DNA of 64,000 bases from the NCBI GenBank assembly GCA_001725155.1, contig MEFP01000012.1:124001-188000 (forward strand), given 5' to 3'. The DNA is from Lysobacteraceae bacterium SCN 69-320 (GTDB taxonomy: Bacteria > Pseudomonadota > Gammaproteobacteria > Xanthomonadales > Rhodanobacteraceae). A program made the translations under genes and the position numbers. The notes under the pieces were generated by a model. It was not told where the DNA came from. It was given only the letters and a program-made list of their open reading frames with translations, and ran no database searches. Shown here piece by piece: positions 50,805-58,521 of this stretch (positions are counted from its first letter, which is position 1; every line of letters starts with the position of its first letter).

Positions 50805-53800
50805 ATGCGCGCCCGTCCCCCCGTCATCACTGGCGTCCGGATCCTGTTGTGCCTGTTGTCGTCCCTGGGGCCGGCCGCCTCCGCGGCGGCGGCGGATTTT
50901 CGCCGCGGTCCCGACCTCGCGGCGGCGCGTTCCAGTCATGCCGCGGCCTTGCTGCAGGACGGCCGCGTGCTCGTCGCCGGCGGTTCGGCAGCAGCTGCGG
51001 CCTGGACCACCGAACTGTATGACCCCGTGCAGCACCGCTGGCAGAGCGGTCCCGCCCTCGGCCAGGCGGAAGCCGCCGCCACGCTGACGACCTTGCAGAC
51101 CGGCAAGGTGCTGCTCGTGGGGCAGGGCCGGCAACTGTTCGATCCGCTGACGAGCACCTGGAGCGCACCGGCGGCGGCAGTGACGCCGCATCGCCGGCAT
51201 ACCGCGACCGTGCTCGCGACCGGACAGGTGCTCGTCGCCGGCGGCGAAGGACGCTTCGGCGGCGAAACGGATGCGCTGGAATGGTATGACCCGGTCAACG
51301 ACAGCGCGACCTACTGGGGCCGTCTGAATCAGGCACGCAGCAGTCATGCGGCCGTGCGGCTGAACTCGGGCAAGGTGCTGTTTGCCGGCGGGCGCGGTTC
51401 CGGCGCGACGCTGGCCAGCGTGGAAGTGTTCGATCCGCAGTTGAACTACACCGAGCTCGGTCCGGGCAGCCTGCTTGCCGCGCGCAGCGGCTTCAGCCTG
51501 ACCCTGCTGCCCGGCGGCAAGGTGCTCGCCGCAGGCGGCAACGACGGCATGGCGAATCTGGCCAGCGCCGAAATCTACGACCCGGCCAGCGGCACCTGGC
51601 AATGGGCCGGCGGCATGAGCGTGCCGCGCAGCGGCCATGCGGCAACCTTGCTGCCCGACGGCCGGGTTCTGGTCAGCGGCGGCGAAACCGCGCCGGGTAC
51701 GGCAGCGGCCACTGCGGAAATCTACGATCCGGCCAGTGGCGGCTGGTCGAGCGCCGGCAGCCTGGCCGTCGTGCGCGCCGGCCATGCGGCCGTGCTGCTG
51801 CCCAGCGGTTCGGTAATGCTGGCCGGCGGCACCGGCAGCGCGGCCGCGGCAACGAGTTCGGAATGGTTCGATCCGGCCGTCCCGCTGGCCCGCTTCGACA
51901 GCCTGCTGCAGAGCCTGCGCACCGGCGCCGTCGCGACCTGGCTGCCGCCGGGCAAGGTGCTGTTCGGCGGCGGCGGCATGAACAACGACTACAACACCTT
52001 CGCCGATGTCTTCGATACCGCGACGTCGGGCTGGTCAGGCATCAATCTGGTCGCCGGGCGCACGCGGCACACGCAGACCTTGCTCGGCAACGGCAAGGTC
52101 CTGCTGGCCGGCGGCCTGTACTTCGGCACGCCGACGGCCCACAGCGAACTGGTCAGCGGACAGACGTCGAGCAGCACCGCCGCAGCGCCGATGCTGACCG
52201 CGCGCGCCGCGCATACGGCGAGCCTGCTGGCCGACGGCAGCGTGCTCGCCGTCGGCGGCTACGGCAGCGACGGCGCCGCCATCGCAGCGGCCGAACGCTA
52301 TCGTCCGGGACTGAACAGCTGGACCGCCTGCGCCGCGCTGAACACGCCGCGGGCCGATCACACGGCCACCCTGCTCGACGACGGCCGCGTACTCGTCAGC
52401 GGCGGCCGCGATGCGGCAGGGCAGGTGCTCGACAGCGCGGAGCTCTACGACCCGGCGACCGACCTCTGGACGACGGTCGCAGCGACCGGGGCCGCACGCC
52501 AGCGCGCGACGGCAACCTTGCTGCGCTCGGGCGCCGTGCTCGTCACCGGCGGCAGCGACGGCGCCGACCTCCCGCTCGCTCGCGTGGACCTGTTCGACCC
52601 ACGCACCTCGACCTGGCGCCGCGGCGCGGATCTGGCGCTGCCGCGCGTGCTGCATTCGGCCACCTTGCTGCCGTCCGGGCAGGTGCTGGTCGCTGGCGGC
52701 CGGTCCGGTCCCGGCGGCGGCCTGCGCGAGGTGGAAATCTATTCACCTGAGTTCGATCGCTGGACGCCTGCGCCGCTGCTCACCGTGCTGCGCGCCGGGC
52801 ATTCGGCGCTGTTGCTGCCGTCCGGCGACGTGCTGATCGCCTTCGGCTACGGCAACAACTGGGTGCCGCTGCTGGAGCGCTACGATCCCGGCCTGGCACC
52901 GGATCCCGCGCGCCAGCCGCGGCTGTATTCGGCCGACCTGCTGGCCGGCAGCCACGGCACCTTGCGCGCGACCGGCAGCGGTTTGCGGCCGGCCGCGACC
53001 GCCGATTCGGGCAGCGGCGCCGGCGCCGCCAGCAATCTGCCGCTGCTGCAGCTGCAGCGCATCGACAACGGCCAGATGCGCTTCATCGCCGCCGATGCCG
53101 CGCTGCCGTTCAGCGACAGCCTGTTCGCCGGCCGGCCGCGCGATTTCGCGAATTTTCCGGCCGGCCCGCTGCTTGTACGCGCCTGGGTCAACGGCATTCC
53201 GGGCGCCGCGCTGCAGACCACGCAGGCCAGCGTGCCGGCGGCGACGGCGCCGCCGCAGGCCGGCGGCGGCGTGCGGCGCGCCACGGTCACGTTCGTGCCG
53301 CCGAACGACGACGGCGGCGCGCCGATCAGCGGCTATCGCGTGAGCGCCGTGCCCGGCGCCGCGCTGCGGACCTGCCTGGCGCCCTGCAGTACCGTGGATT
53401 TCGAGGATCTGTCGCCGGGCACCTATACGTTCACGGTCAGCGCCGTAAACCTCGCCGGCGCGGCGGCACCATCGGCGCCGAGCAACAGCGTCGTGGCGCA
53501 GGCGCGCGCAACGGTGACCCTGGGCAGCGGCGAGAATCCCGGCGCCTACGGCAGTCCCGTCACGTTCACAGCGAGCGTCGCCGGCGAGGCCCCCGGTGGT
53601 ACGGTCACGTTCCGCGCCGACGGCACCGTCCTGTGCGCCGACGTCGCGCTGGCCGCCGCCATCGCGACCTGTTCGACCGATGCGCTCGCCGGCGGCCTGC
53701 ATGCGATCGTTGCGAGCTATGCCGGCGATGCGGGCAATACCGCGGCGGAATCCGCCACCCTGTATCAGCAGATCGACACCGCCGCCTCGCAGGCGGCGCT

Positions 53801-54437
53801 GAGCAGCTCGGCCAATCCGAGCCGCTACGGCGACAGCGTGGTGCTGACGGCCACGATCACGGCACGCTGGCTCGACGGCCATGTCGACTTCCACGACGGT
53901 GCGACACCGCTGTGCCTGCAGGTCGCGCTGAGCAGCGGCATCGCGCGCTGCAGCGTGAACGATTTCGTCGTCGGCACCCACGCGATCACCGCGCGCTACG
54001 GCGGCGACGGCGACACCGGCGCCTCGGTGTCGTTCGCACTCGCGCAGCAGGTGCTCGCGCTGCCGACGACGACCAGCGTCGCTACGCCCTGCGGCCGCGC
54101 GTTCAGCGCGAACCAGCCGTTCACGCTGCAGGCGACGATCACCGCCACGCCGCTCGGCGGCACGCCGGCCGGGCAGGTGGATTTCGTTGCCGACAGCGGC
54201 GCCACCCTGTGCACGGCGGTGCCGCTGGTCGGCGGTGCGGCGAACTGCACGACCACGGCCCTCGCTGCGCCGGCCGGGCAGGGCCAGGGCGTCGTCGCGA
54301 TCCGCGCGCGCTACAGCGGCGACGCGATCAATGCCGGTGGCAGTTCGCCGGACCTGACCGTGACCGTGCTCGATCCCGCCGACGTGCTGCTGCGCAGCGG
54401 TTTGGAGGCCGCAGTGCCGGGGTGTCCGGCGCGCTAG
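50805..54437 (+). CDS. Secreted kelch-repeat protein with fibronectin and Ig-like domains
   Basis: The 1210-residue product has a signal peptide (VRILLCLLSSLGPAASAAAA). About a dozen kelch repeats (about 35-690; ARSSHAAALLQDGRVLVAGG and similar) form probably two beta-propellers. An unassigned region (about 700-820) is followed by a fibronectin type III domain (about 825-905), three bacterial Ig-like domains (about 905-1190), and a short C-terminal tail LLRSGLEAAVPGCPAR. The tail resembles the FxxGFE-type C-termini seen on secreted proteins of this lineage. It is probably a surface adhesin or carbohydrate-binding protein; galactose-oxidase catalytic residues were not recognised. The ATG at 50805 has GGAG seven bases upstream. 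Confidence 0.87.
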   Translation: MRARPPVITGVRILLCLLSSLGPAASAAAADFRRGPDLAAARSSHAAALLQDGRVLVAGGSAAAAAWTTELYDPVQHRWQSGPALGQAEAAATLTTLQTGKVLLVGQGRQLFDPLTSTWSAPAAAVTPHRRHTATVLATGQVLVAGGEGRFGGETDALEWYDPVNDSATYWGRLNQARSSHAAVRLNSGKVLFAGGRGSGATLASVEVFDPQLNYTELGPGSLLAARSGFSLTLLPGGKVLAAGGNDGMANLASAEIYDPASGTWQWAGGMSVPRSGHAATLLPDGRVLVSGGETAPGTAAATAEIYDPASGGWSSAGSLAVVRAGHAAVLLPSGSVMLAGGTGSAAAATSSEWFDPAVPLARFDSLLQSLRTGAVATWLPPGKVLFGGGGMNNDYNTFADVFDTATSGWSGINLVAGRTRHTQTLLGNGKVLLAGGLYFGTPTAHSELVSGQTSSSTAAAPMLTARAAHTASLLADGSVLAVGGYGSDGAAIAAAERYRPGLNSWTACAALNTPRADHTATLLDDGRVLVSGGRDAAGQVLDSAELYDPATDLWTTVAATGAARQRATATLLRSGAVLVTGGSDGADLPLARVDLFDPRTSTWRRGADLALPRVLHSATLLPSGQVLVAGGRSGPGGGLREVEIYSPEFDRWTPAPLLTVLRAGHSALLLPSGDVLIAFGYGNNWVPLLERYDPGLAPDPARQPRLYSADLLAGSHGTLRATGSGLRPAATADSGSGAGAASNLPLLQLQRIDNGQMRFIAADAALPFSDSLFAGRPRDFANFPAGPLLVRAWVNGIPGAALQTTQASVPAATAPPQAGGGVRRATVTFVPPNDDGGAPISGYRVSAVPGAALRTCLAPCSTVDFEDLSPGTYTFTVSAVNLAGAAAPSAPSNSVVAQARATVTLGSGENPGAYGSPVTFTASVAGEAPGGTVTFRADGTVLCADVALAAAIATCSTDALAGGLHAIVASYAGDAGNTAAESATLYQQIDTAASQAALSSSANPSRYGDSVVLTATITARWLDGHVDFHDGATPLCLQVALSSGIARCSVNDFVVGTHAITARYGGDGDTGASVSFALAQQVLALPTTTSVATPCGRAFSANQPFTLQATITATPLGGTPAGQVDFVADSGATLCTAVPLVGGAANCTTTALAAPAGQGQGVVAIRARYSGDAINAGGSSPDLTVTVLDPADVLLRSGLEAAVPGCPAR

Positions 54438-54507
54438 CGCCGGCGCGGTCCCGATGCGGACGCTCTGCCGGGTGGACAAGCCGCGCGGCACGCGCCAGAT
54501 TGCGGCG

Positions 54508-56010
54508 ATGACGAATCCCCGATCGACTTACGCGCAGCGGCTCGCGCAGCGACTCGTGCCGTCCGGTTTCGTCGCGGTACAGCGCGACGGCAGGCTCTGG
54601 CTGCGCTATCCCGACGGCTACGACTCCGAAGTCATGCCGGACGGCAGTCTGCACAGCGACGACGACATCGAAGCCACGGCACGCACCCTGGAAACCCTGG
54701 CCCGGCGGCGCGCGGTTTCCCTCGCCGTCCTGAGCATGGCCTGCGATCTGAGCGGATACGACCTGGAGGCCGGCACGGACGGGGTGTGGGCGCTGTGCCA
54801 AGGGGGCGCGTCCAGCGTGGTGTCCGTGGGGTGGACCCTGACGGCCGTGCTGCGCGAGGGCGAGCCCGAGGTCGTGCTTGCCGGGTATCTGCGCGGAACC
54901 GGCGCTTTTCCGGTCGCCGGCAACACGCTTGCTCGCGCATTTGCAATGGACCGGATTCACGTCTGCGCTTCACCGCCGATGGCGGCCCCACGACAGACGT
55001 TGCCGCCCAGCGAACCGTTGCCCCCAGTCGCCGCAGCCGACGACGGCGACGACGCGGCGATGGACGCCTGGTGCGATCGCCAGCTCAACCGTCTGCGCGA
55101 GCGTCTGAAGCGGCCCTGGTTCAACTACATCGCGGAGTTCGGCGCGCTCTGGTACCGCGGCGAGGGTGACTGGATCACGCACGAGGAACTGGTGGAATGC
55201 GCGCAGGCCAGCCTGCAGGCCAGAGCCTGTCCCGGCCATGCCCTGCATTGCCTGCTGCTGCTCGGCCGCGAGGACTATCGTCCGGCGGCGCTGGCCGCCT
55301 GGGACCAGTGGTCGGGCCGCGGCGATGGAGACGTCATGGGCTTCGACGACCTGGCGGCGCTGCTGTATGCGGAGCGGGAAGATGCGCGGGACATGATTCA
55401 TGAACTGGACAATTTTCATGTGCGGCGGGCCGTGCGCGCCGGCCAGTTCAATGCGCTGCATATGGCGAGGGCGGAATTCCTGAGGAACCTCGCGGCGTTC
55501 CGGCGCAGCGTCGGCGACGACGAACGCTGGAACGCTTTCCTGGATCTGGTCCAGCCGCTGGTCCGGGAAGGCCTGTTCCTGCTGCCGATGTTTCTCGATC
55601 CCGACGAGATCGAAACCTTGCATGTCCTGACCCTCGCGATGGCGCGCCGGCCGCCGGCCGAGGATGCCTGGCGTTTCATCCACGACACCTTGTCGCTGGC
55701 CGCGCCGCTGGGCTGGAAGGACGTGGCGGAATGCTTCGTCGCGCTGCCGCGCTGGCGCAACGCGATCCTCGGCGACGACAACGCGCCAGGCTATTGCGAC
55801 GGTGACGTCACGACGGGATGTCTCGCGCTGAGCCTGGTCTGCCCGCAGATCGCCAGGCATGCGATCGTCCGGAGCGCCTTTCTCCGATACCAGGCGCGTC
55901 CCGGCAAACGAAGAAGGTACGAGGAAAACGCCGATGCCATTGCGGTGGCCTGGTGGCGCTGTCGCGCGGCCGGCAAGGCGGCTGTCGTGGGAGCTGCGGC
56001 CGGCCTCTGA
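54508..56010 (+). CDS. Cytoplasmic protein of unknown function
   Basis: The 500-residue product has no signal peptide, membrane span or known motif. The N-terminal ~150 residues are mixed alpha/beta (RLVPSGFVAVQRDGRLWLRYPDGYDSEVMPDGSL). An Ala/Pro-rich linker follows (about 165-185), then a helical C-terminal domain with many aromatic residues (FNYIAEFGALWYRG, LLPMFLDPDEIETLHVLTLAM). The ATG at 54508 is chosen over 54454 because the first 18 codons look random and neither has a strong RBS. It may be co-transcribed with the kelch protein gene 70 bases upstream. Confidence 0.65.
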   Translation: MTNPRSTYAQRLAQRLVPSGFVAVQRDGRLWLRYPDGYDSEVMPDGSLHSDDDIEATARTLETLARRRAVSLAVLSMACDLSGYDLEAGTDGVWALCQGGASSVVSVGWTLTAVLREGEPEVVLAGYLRGTGAFPVAGNTLARAFAMDRIHVCASPPMAAPRQTLPPSEPLPPVAAADDGDDAAMDAWCDRQLNRLRERLKRPWFNYIAEFGALWYRGEGDWITHEELVECAQASLQARACPGHALHCLLLLGREDYRPAALAAWDQWSGRGDGDVMGFDDLAALLYAEREDARDMIHELDNFHVRRAVRAGQFNALHMARAEFLRNLAAFRRSVGDDERWNAFLDLVQPLVREGLFLLPMFLDPDEIETLHVLTLAMARRPPAEDAWRFIHDTLSLAAPLGWKDVAECFVALPRWRNAILGDDNAPGYCDGDVTTGCLALSLVCPQIARHAIVRSAFLRYQARPGKRRRYEENADAIAVAWWRCRAAGKAAVVGAAAGL

Positions 56011-56149
56011 GGCGCGCGCCGCCGTGCCCGCGGCAGGGCCGCTGCGGGCCGTCGCCGCGATCAGCCCGCTTCGCGCCTGACGCGAAACAGCCCTCGAAAG
56101 GATCAAAGGCGCGCCATGAAAATTTCTGATGGGCCGATGAATTAATTTA

Positions 56150-56182
56150 TTGGTAAAACGTATAGAAAAACAGATTAATAAT
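56150..56182 (+). promoter_or_regulatory. AT-rich promoter-like segment upstream of the di-haem protein gene
   Basis: A strikingly AT-rich island (56118-56187) in a GC-rich genome contains TTGGTA (56150) and, beyond it, attaataatattt. A -35/-10 pair with 18-21 base spacing is possible but the match is imperfect. Confidence 0.35.
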
Positions 56183-56244
56183 ATTTCCCATGTCTCCGAT
56201 CGGGCGTATCGTGCGCCGGACCGATCACCCAACGGAGAACCTCC

Positions 56245-58521
56245 ATGCAGGCAGGATCGCAGTCGCAGTGGTTGCACGCGTCGCTCGTCGCCGGATGTAT
56301 CGGCCTCTGCAGCGTCTTGTGGGCAGGACCGGCGAGAGCCGGCACGGAGGAGCCGATCGCCTATATCGGCCATGGCGCGTTCTTCGAGGCGTCCGGCCGG
56401 CAGATCACGCCGACGCAGCAGTTCGTCGCCGAGGCACAGGCCTGGTACCGGGCCGACCTGACGCAACGCCTCGACGGCAGCAAGGCTTTCGACTTCGCGG
56501 CGTTCGAGCGCGACCTGTTCGACGGTGTGCCGCCGCAGGGGCAGGCGCGGCTCGTGTTCGAACAGCGCGCGCTGGAATGGCTGTATGCGAACTCGGCGCG
56601 GCAGAAGAACGACGACCGCACGCTCGGCAAGCTGCGCGCGCTCGATTTCGCGTTGACATTCGAGATGCGCGAACGCGTCGACACGAAGGACGTCGGGCAG
56701 GGTGTACCGTTCGTGCTGCCGCCGCCGCTCGCGAAAAAGCTCGCGGCGATCCGTGCGCTGCAGGCGCAGGGCGAGGCGGGCGTCAAGACCGCGACCGTCA
56801 ATTCGGGCATCGCCTACACGAATGAATGCATCGCCGCCGGCGTGCCGATTCCGCCGTCGATCGGGGTAATGGATCCGGCCGGACTCGCGGGCTGGAAGTC
56901 GCAGGGCTTCATTCCGCAGGCGCTGCAGTTCATCGTCGGCACGCCGGCCGAACTGCGCACCTACCGCAGCACCTCGCCGCTGGGCATGTGCTATGCGCTG
57001 CCGCGCTATTCGAACAATGCAATGACGACGGTCGCGCTCGACGGCGTGATCTGCCTCAGCGAAGTCACCTCGAAGGTCTGCATCTGGGACAACCAGATGT
57101 CCGGCACGACGTTTTCGTTCGCGGCCGGCGCGCAGATTCCGATCGGCGCGCCGAACCTCGGCGTCGACCCGCTGGGCCGCTACCAGGCCGGCGGCAACGA
57201 ACTGCTCGGCGGCCAGGGCGGCATCTGCACGGACTGCCATGCCGGCGAGAATCCGTTCATCACCCACCCGAAGGCGAACCTCGGCGCGTACCTGTGGGAG
57301 AACCTCTGGCAGGTGCAGAGCCTGCCGACGTTCGCGCCGAACCGCTACGACCCGCTCGTGCCGGCGAGCTGGCCGCAGAACCAGTTCTCGCAGACCTTCG
57401 CGAGCGTACCGGCCGTATGCAGCGGCTGTCACGTCAAGTACAGCGCCGGACGGTTCCCGCACCTGTCGAACCAGCTGCCGGGCTATTGCGGCACGATCCT
57501 GCCGGGCGGCTACAACACGACGATGCCGCCCGGTGTGCCGGGCACCCAGGTCGCCGCAGCGTCGGCATTCCGCAACGCCTACTGCTTTGCGCCGCCGAAC
57601 AACACGACGGCCGATGCCGGCGACCCGCACATCACGACGACGAACGGCATCAGCTACGACTTCCAGGCCGCCGGCGAATTCGTCGTGCTGACCAACGACG
57701 ACACCGGCTTCGAAGTGCAGAGCCGCCAGTCGCCGGTGCAGACGACGTTCATCCCGCCGCCGAATCCGTATACGGGTCTGCAGAGCTGCGTTTCGCTGAA
57801 CACCGCCGTCGCCGCGCGCGTCAACACGCACCGCGTTACCTACCAGCCCGTGCGCAATACCGCCGGCAAGGAAGACATGCAGCTGCGCATCGACGGCCGC
57901 GTGACCGCGCTGACGGCGACGCCGATCCCGCTCGGCGGCGGCGCCTATGTCGCGCTCGCTGCAGCCGGCGGCGGCATGCACGTCGTGTTCTCCGACGGCA
58001 GCGACCTCGTCGCGACGCCGCGCTTCTGGGCCTCGCAGGGCTACTGGTACATCGACATCGACATCACGAACACGCCGGCGCGCGAAGGCATCGCCGGGCA
58101 TGTGCTCGCCGGCGACTGGCTGCCGCGCGCGCCCGACGGTTCGTCCTTCGGTGCCATGCCCGGCCCGCTCGCGACGCGTCACGTCGTGCTGAACCAGACC
58201 TTCGCCGATGCCTGGCGCGTCACGTCGGCGACGAGCCTGTTCGACTACGCGACCGGCACCTCCACGGCAAACTTCACCGACCGCAACTGGCCGGCACCGC
58301 CGGGGCAGGCCTGCCGCACGACCTTGCAGCCCGTGCGTCCGCCGCTGACGACGATGCAGCCGCAGCTGGCCCTGCAGGCCTGCCGCGCGGTCGAGGACGA
58401 CACGAAGCACGCCCACTGCGTATTCGACGTCACCGTTACCGGTGACGCCGACTTCGCCCGCGGTTATCTGCCGGCTGACGGCGCTGCCGGCGGTCCCGCT
58501 CGGCCCGTCGGCAAGAACTGA
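56245..58521 (+). CDS. Secreted di-haem c-type cytochrome with von Willebrand type D domain
   Basis: The 758-residue product has a signal peptide (about 1-32, ending GPARAG) and two haem motifs, CTDCH (about 327) and CSGCH (about 392). After the haem region (about 455-640) comes a von Willebrand factor type D-like domain with the diagnostic GDPHITTTNGISYDFQAAGEFVVL. VWD domains are common in animal secreted proteins and rare next to haem domains. Twelve or more other Cys suggest disulfides and an extracellular location. The ATG at 56245 has GGAG seven bases upstream. An electron-transfer or surface adhesion role is possible. Confidence 0.85.
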   Translation: MQAGSQSQWLHASLVAGCIGLCSVLWAGPARAGTEEPIAYIGHGAFFEASGRQITPTQQFVAEAQAWYRADLTQRLDGSKAFDFAAFERDLFDGVPPQGQARLVFEQRALEWLYANSARQKNDDRTLGKLRALDFALTFEMRERVDTKDVGQGVPFVLPPPLAKKLAAIRALQAQGEAGVKTATVNSGIAYTNECIAAGVPIPPSIGVMDPAGLAGWKSQGFIPQALQFIVGTPAELRTYRSTSPLGMCYALPRYSNNAMTTVALDGVICLSEVTSKVCIWDNQMSGTTFSFAAGAQIPIGAPNLGVDPLGRYQAGGNELLGGQGGICTDCHAGENPFITHPKANLGAYLWENLWQVQSLPTFAPNRYDPLVPASWPQNQFSQTFASVPAVCSGCHVKYSAGRFPHLSNQLPGYCGTILPGGYNTTMPPGVPGTQVAAASAFRNAYCFAPPNNTTADAGDPHITTTNGISYDFQAAGEFVVLTNDDTGFEVQSRQSPVQTTFIPPPNPYTGLQSCVSLNTAVAARVNTHRVTYQPVRNTAGKEDMQLRIDGRVTALTATPIPLGGGAYVALAAAGGGMHVVFSDGSDLVATPRFWASQGYWYIDIDITNTPAREGIAGHVLAGDWLPRAPDGSSFGAMPGPLATRHVVLNQTFADAWRVTSATSLFDYATGTSTANFTDRNWPAPPGQACRTTLQPVRPPLTTMQPQLALQACRAVEDDTKHAHCVFDVTVTGDADFARGYLPADGAAGGPARPVGKN

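What the first reader, a model, noticed from the sequence alone, without database searches (positions are those of the whole stretch)
56245..58521. c-type cytochrome fused to a von Willebrand type D domain
Two haem motifs precede a clear VWD segment (GDPHITTTNGISYDF) in one secreted protein. VWD domains act in assembly and adhesion; linking one to haems may mean a surface electron-transfer or matrix protein.
Basis: partly seen in the sequence, partly recalled or inferred. Interest (0 to 1): 0.52.

Follow-up and report, generated by a model that had tools for sequence, protein, structure and literature searches.

The report
Secreted dihaem cytochrome with VWD tail
The bacterium Tahibacter makes one secreted protein whose front half belongs to a small, unnamed family of two-haem cytochromes and whose back half is a bacterial cousin of the D domain of von Willebrand factor, and it keeps the residues that let some human relatives cut themselves exactly between the two halves.

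Summary
The ORF at 56245-58521 (+, 758 aa) has two CxxCH motifs and a C-terminal VWD module. Both haem motifs are kept in every relative that covers them: Tahibacter orthologs, a Thiothrix plasmid copy, four vWA-fused proteins (one contig fragment covers only the second motif) and two stand-alone homologs at 27-32% identity. No Pfam or NCBIfam model names the cytochrome half; its signature is CxxCHxGxN-HP, CxxCH, TMP, plus six non-haem cysteines. Pfam's VWD model does not report the query itself. Homology runs through Nostoc and Deinococcus proteins that Pfam does call VWD, and a family profile finds human FCGBP in the PDB (E=4e-14). The module ends in a C8-like tail. New points: (i) both halves are portable: the VWD-C8 tail also follows proteases, a hydrolase and a BNR protein, and the cytochrome also precedes vWA; (ii) GDPH is invariant, sits at the domain boundary and carries the Asp, Pro, His and Gln that FCGBP uses for self-cleavage. 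I read it as a periplasmic or secreted dihaem cytochrome with a possibly self-cleaving VWD-C8 tail. Haem attachment and cleavage are inferred. Structure models were too poor to use.

The parts
56245..58521 (+). Whole gene: dihaem cytochrome fused to a VWD-C8 module, 758 aa, single gene
   Evidence: orthologs; dN/dS
56234..56237 (+). Shine-Dalgarno-like GGAG before the ATG
   Evidence: sequence read directly
56245..56340 (+). Predicted Sec signal peptide (residues 1-32, ...AGPARA|G); a lipobox-like VAGC in the query is not kept in T. aquaticus
   Evidence: read by eye from sequence and ortholog alignment; not run through a predictor
56341..56784 (+). N-terminal helical part of the cytochrome module (residues 33-180), the less conserved part of the module
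   Evidence: low-confidence AF2 model with a confident helical stretch; dN/dS
56785..57585 (+). Cytochrome core (residues 181-447), the most conserved part; non-haem Cys 195, 249, 270, 279, 415, 447
   Evidence: alignments; dN/dS 0.03 against T. caeni
57226..57240 (+). Haem motif 1, CTDCH (328-332), in the signature CxxCHxGxNxxxxHP
   Evidence: invariant
57265..57267 (+). Invariant His341 (HP), candidate distal haem ligand
   Evidence: ligand role inferred
57418..57432 (+). Haem motif 2, CSGCH (392-396)
   Evidence: invariant
57523..57525 (+). Invariant Met427 (TMP), candidate distal ligand of haem 2
   Evidence: ligand role inferred
57586..57618 (+). Pro/Asn/Thr-rich linker between the modules (448-458)
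   Evidence: sequence
57619..58119 (+). VWD domain (about residues 459-625), lacking the canonical GLxGxFxGxxxDD loop
57619..57630 (+). GDPH motif (459-462), predicted Asp460-Pro461 self-cleavage site
   Evidence: invariant in 11 of 11 aligned members; chemistry from PMC10880436; cleavage here not tested
57664..57666 (+). Gln474, at Asp+14, the position of FCGBP Gln4094 which assists cleavage
   Evidence: nearly invariant; PMC10880436
58312..58470 (+). C8-like tail (residues 690-742) with Cys690, 713, 725 and the C-V-F-D-V motif
   Evidence: invariant Cys; C8-3_MUC4 and RGM_C sub-threshold; FCGBP C8 match

Best explanation
This is a Sec-exported dihaem c-type cytochrome of an unnamed, mobile cytochrome family. 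Its C-terminus carries a portable VWD-C8 module. The Ccm system would attach two haems in the periplasm at Cys328/331 and Cys392/395, with His332 and His396 as proximal ligands. Conserved His341 and Met427 are the likeliest distal ligands. Six further cysteines would brace the core by disulfides. The VWD-C8 tail works as an accessory unit placed behind secreted enzymes: it likely binds a surface or polymer, and its GDPH site can probably hydrolyse between Asp460 and Pro461. That cut would leave a cytochrome of about 430 residues and a separate or still-associated VWD-C8 piece. Shown: the two modules, their conservation, their independent recombination, and a CcmF gene in the genome. Inferred: haem attachment, ligands, export, self-cleavage, binding and redox role.
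For: Both CxxCH motifs, the HP His and the TMP Met are invariant down to 27-32% identity. The haem core is the slowest-changing part. CcmF is present in the genome at E=7.6e-216. VWD homology is shown. The VWD-C8 tail follows a subtilisin-like protease, a trypsin-like protease, a hydrolase-like protein and a BNR protein in other bacteria. The cytochrome precedes vWA in four gammaproteobacteria and stands alone in two proteobacteria. GDPH is invariant. In FCGBP, mutating the Asp or His blocks cleavage and mutating the Gln impairs it (PMC10880436); all are present here.
Against: In FCGBP the first beta-strand of the domain lies before GDPH, whereas here a short Pro/Asn/Thr-rich linker does, so the cleavage geometry may differ. 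A GDPH motif may also be kept for structural reasons. Both AF2 models were poor (mean pLDDT 39 and 45) and the PDB fold search was uninformative. No Pfam cytochrome model reaches its cut-off. Nothing in the neighbourhood points to a redox partner.
Confidence: 0.45

Rival explanations
1. It stays intact and works: the VWD part fixes the protein on the cell surface or in the matrix, and the two haems pass electrons at that place.
For: The two modules co-occur in five of seven congeners and on a Thiothrix plasmid, so the link is selected. VWD domains act in adhesion in animals, and the same has been proposed for bacterial ones facing prey (PMC12419801).
Against: No C-terminal membrane anchor and no conserved lipobox. 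Only two haems, and no adjacent electron-transfer genes. The invariant GDPH site suggests the halves may separate.
Confidence: 0.25
2. It is a secreted haem enzyme (a peroxidase-like or dioxygenase-like dihaem protein), and VWD-C8 targets it to a polymeric substrate, as tails do for secreted hydrolases.
For: The same tail sits behind secreted proteases and hydrolase-like proteins, which suggests the front half is also a catalyst. An open or His-ligated haem 1 is possible.
Against: No sequence match to any solved dihaem peroxidase or rubber oxygenase in the PDB and no Pfam match to such families.
Confidence: 0.2
3. The CxxCH pairs bind zinc or form disulfides, so the front half is not a cytochrome.
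For: No cytochrome model passes its cut-off. The module is rich in other cysteines. A weak double zinc ribbon match appears in one relative.
Against: The His of CxxCH is invariant in both motifs. The best weak matches across members are Cytochrome_C7 (9 of 9), paired CXXCH (7 of 9) and Cytochrome_CBB3. The protein has a signal-peptide-like start and CcmF is present.
Confidence: 0.08

Closest known systems
VWD-C8 assemblies of animal FCGBP, MUC2, MUC5AC/B and RGM
   Same: GDPH start, YDFQ motif, VWD followed by a C8-like Cys-FDV tail; profile match to FCGBP at E=4e-14
   Different: Bacterial, single copy, fewer cysteines, lacks the GLxGxFxGxxxDD loop, no TIL/E domains, placed behind a cytochrome
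Bacterial VWD proteins (Nostoc and Deinococcus 'VWD domain-containing protein'; myxobacterial prok-SAA-metallopeptidase-vWD proteins, PMC12419801)
   Same: Secreted bacterial VWD after another module; the first two are direct homologs
   Different: The Nostoc and Deinococcus proteins carry no haem motifs; the myxobacterial proteins are known here only from the paper
Cytochrome c7 / paired-CXXCH / cbb3-type cytochrome domains (PF14522, PF09699, PF13442)
   Same: CxxCH motifs; a downstream MP motif like the Met ligand of class I cytochromes
   Different: All matches weak, below the curated cut-off where it was shown; different spacing, six extra conserved Cys, larger module
RoxA-type rubber oxygenases and dihaem peroxidases
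   Same: Secreted protein with two CxxCH motifs (resemblance from memory)
   Different: No sequence match to any such structure in the PDB copy

Membership tests
c-type cytochrome | CxxCH haem attachment motifs conserved in relatives | tested here: met
   both invariant in all relatives covering them
c-type cytochrome | export signal and a cytochrome c maturation system in the genome | tested here: met
   signal peptide read by eye only; CcmF found
c-type cytochrome | match to a known cytochrome domain model | tested here: inconclusive
   PF14522, PF09699 and PF13442 hit members only weakly
c-type cytochrome | covalently bound haem | not testable with these tools
   needs haem stain and spectra
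VWD domain (PF00094) | Pfam match over cut-off | tested here: not met
   query not reported at E<=1; tail relatives L018, L020 and L021 at 0.0035-0.014, below cut-off
VWD domain (PF00094) | homology to proteins that pass the Pfam cut-off | tested here: met
   Nostoc and Deinococcus proteins, blastp 3e-29 and 2e-18; profile to FCGBP 4e-14
VWD domain (PF00094) | VWD fold | tested here: inconclusive
   models too poor
Self-cleaving GDPH VWD | Asp, Pro, His of GDPH and Gln at Asp+14 | tested here: met
   D460, P461, H462, Q474
Self-cleaving GDPH VWD | hydrolysis of the Asp-Pro bond | not testable with these tools
   needs protein and SDS-PAGE or N-terminal sequencing
RoxA or dihaem peroxidase | sequence homology to solved members | tested here: not met
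   no such chain among PDB matches

The most novel reading that the evidence does not exclude
Bacteria use a portable GDPH VWD-C8 module as a self-cleaving C-terminal tail on secreted enzymes and cytochromes. The Asp-Pro self-cut known from animal mucin-type proteins would then be a bacterial device for releasing or remodelling exported proteins, here a dihaem cytochrome of an undescribed family.
Probability: 0.3. Interest if true: 0.68.

Novelty: new variant of a known kind. Interest (0 to 1): 0.5.

Why it matters
It joins two domain types that I found no paper describing together. It exposes an unnamed dihaem cytochrome family that was linked to von Willebrand-type domains at least twice (A and D). 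It also suggests that the self-cleavage of VWD domains, studied only in animals in the papers found, can be tested in simple bacterial proteins.

Tried and rejected
AF2 of the full protein (mean pLDDT 39) and of the VWD-C8 module alone (45) were too poor; the Foldseek search gave no match at E<=0.001 and is not used. Viral contigs held no relative of either module, and the single phage-record hit is chance (E=1). The complementary-strand ORF 54970-58416 (1148 aa) is rejected as a by-product of high GC: the plus strand carries the conserved domains. Operon context was tested and dropped: neighbours are shared only with T. caeni. The Pfam VWD search of the genome found nothing even in its control genomes, so it proves nothing. 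RoxA or peroxidase membership was rejected for lack of any match. Guesses about the neighbourhood of the own-genome VWD paralog were not supported by Pfam, NCBIfam or PHROGs.

Full report
What is there. The gene at 56245-58521 (+) encodes 758 residues. It has a Shine-Dalgarno-like GGAG, an N-terminal hydrophobic stretch ending in AGPARA|G, CTDCH at 328-332, CSGCH at 392-396, GDPH at 459-462, and a cysteine-bearing tail. Two CxxCH motifs are not expected by chance (0 of 20,000 shuffles). The window lies in a Tahibacter genome (Rhodanobacteraceae): records named Tahibacter caeni, soli and aquaticus carry orthologs at 93, 88 and 73% identity. Five of seven congeneric genomes searched have it and two do not. 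The gene is under purifying selection, strongest in the haem core (dN/dS 0.03 against T. caeni). Its neighbours are shared only with T. caeni, so it looks like a single-gene unit.

The front half. Residues 33-447 form a module that no Pfam or NCBIfam model claims above its cut-off. Weak matches across its members are mostly cytochrome-like: Cytochrome_C7 in 9 of 9, paired CXXCH in 7 of 9, Cytochrome_CBB3 in 3. Relatives show it is portable. It precedes an Ig-like plus vWA region in four gammaproteobacteria (L024, L030, L045, L046; L030 lies at a contig end and holds only the second motif; only L024 was run through Pfam, the others are read from the alignment of sequence). It stands alone in one proteobacterium (L027) and on a Rhizobium plasmid, downstream of YcaO and TfuA genes. 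It is fused to VWD in Tahibacter and on a Thiothrix subterranea plasmid, where the frame is broken into two ORFs. Across all of these the invariant set is CxxCHxGxN....HP, CxxCH, C...L......TMP and further cysteines. A tree of the core puts all VWD fusions together (87/100 support), consistent with one fusion event and later transfer, although some branches are long. CcmF, needed for haem attachment by system I, is in the genome.

The back half. Pfam does not report VWD for the query, but the module is VWD by descent. Its relatives in Nostoc and Deinococcus are Pfam VWD at 1.4e-12 and 8.6e-14 and align with the query over the whole module (3e-29 and 2e-18). A profile built from eleven members finds human FCGBP in the PDB at 4e-14, then MUC5B and MUC5AC below 0.001 and MUC2 at about 0.01. 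The module ends in a Cys-FDV tail that resembles C8: sub-threshold C8-3_MUC4 and RGM_C and the matching stretch of FCGBP. It has lost the GLxGxFxGxxxDD loop of typical VWD. It is portable too, following a subtilisin-like protease (L018), a trypsin-like protease by eye (L023), a hydrolase-like protein (L021) and a BNR protein (L022). In the same genome it sits in a shorter paralog with a C-terminal membrane anchor (L020).

How it may work. The GDPH motif is the known hydrolysis site of animal VWD domains. In FCGBP, changing its Asp or His stops cleavage and changing Gln at Asp+14 impairs it (PMC10880436). The query has Asp460, Pro461, His462 and Gln474, and GDPH is invariant in eleven aligned members. 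The site sits right after the linker, so a cut would part the cytochrome from VWD-C8. My preferred reading is an exported dihaem cytochrome carrying a portable VWD-C8 tail that binds something outside the cell and may cut itself off. Steps shown: modules, conservation, shuffling, presence of CcmF. Steps inferred: haem attachment, ligands (His341, Met427), export, cleavage, binding and redox role. FCGBP has a beta-strand before GDPH that this protein may lack, which is the main doubt about cleavage.

What failed. Structure models were poor and the fold search is not informative. No paper found describes a cytochrome-VWD protein. A 2025 paper reports vWD in myxobacterial secreted proteins, calling it the first bacterial example, and proposes adhesion to prey (PMC12419801); the records found here show bacterial VWD is wider.

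Verdict. Real, conserved and unusual in architecture; ordinary in the sense that both parts are recognisable kinds. The testable new idea is bacterial VWD self-cleavage as a general tail on secreted proteins.

Noticed in passing
L039:3385-5696 (Rhizobium sp. TH2 plasmid pTH2a): A stand-alone homolog of the cytochrome module lies downstream of YcaO and TfuA genes, as in peptide-modifying clusters; a possible redox partner there.
   Followed up: partly
L024, L030, L045, L046: The same cytochrome module is fused to an Ig-like region and a vWA domain (with a C-terminal membrane segment in L024) in four gammaproteobacteria: a second, separate link to a von Willebrand-type domain.
   Followed up: partly
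L020:4352-5878 (own genome, contig C19): A VWD paralog with a C-terminal membrane anchor; its large neighbours match no Pfam, NCBIfam or PHROGs family.
   Followed up: partly
L038:16348-18638 (Thiothrix subterranea plasmid): The full fusion at about 50% identity on a 26.6-kb plasmid, broken into two ORFs and annotated as two hypothetical proteins.
   Followed up: yes
window 50805-54437: A 1210-aa protein with many kelch repeats, one fn3 and three Big_3_5 Ig-like domains.
   Followed up: no
window 54454-56010: A 518-aa protein with no Pfam match upstream of the fusion gene, not found beside the gene in the other species checked.
   Followed up: partly
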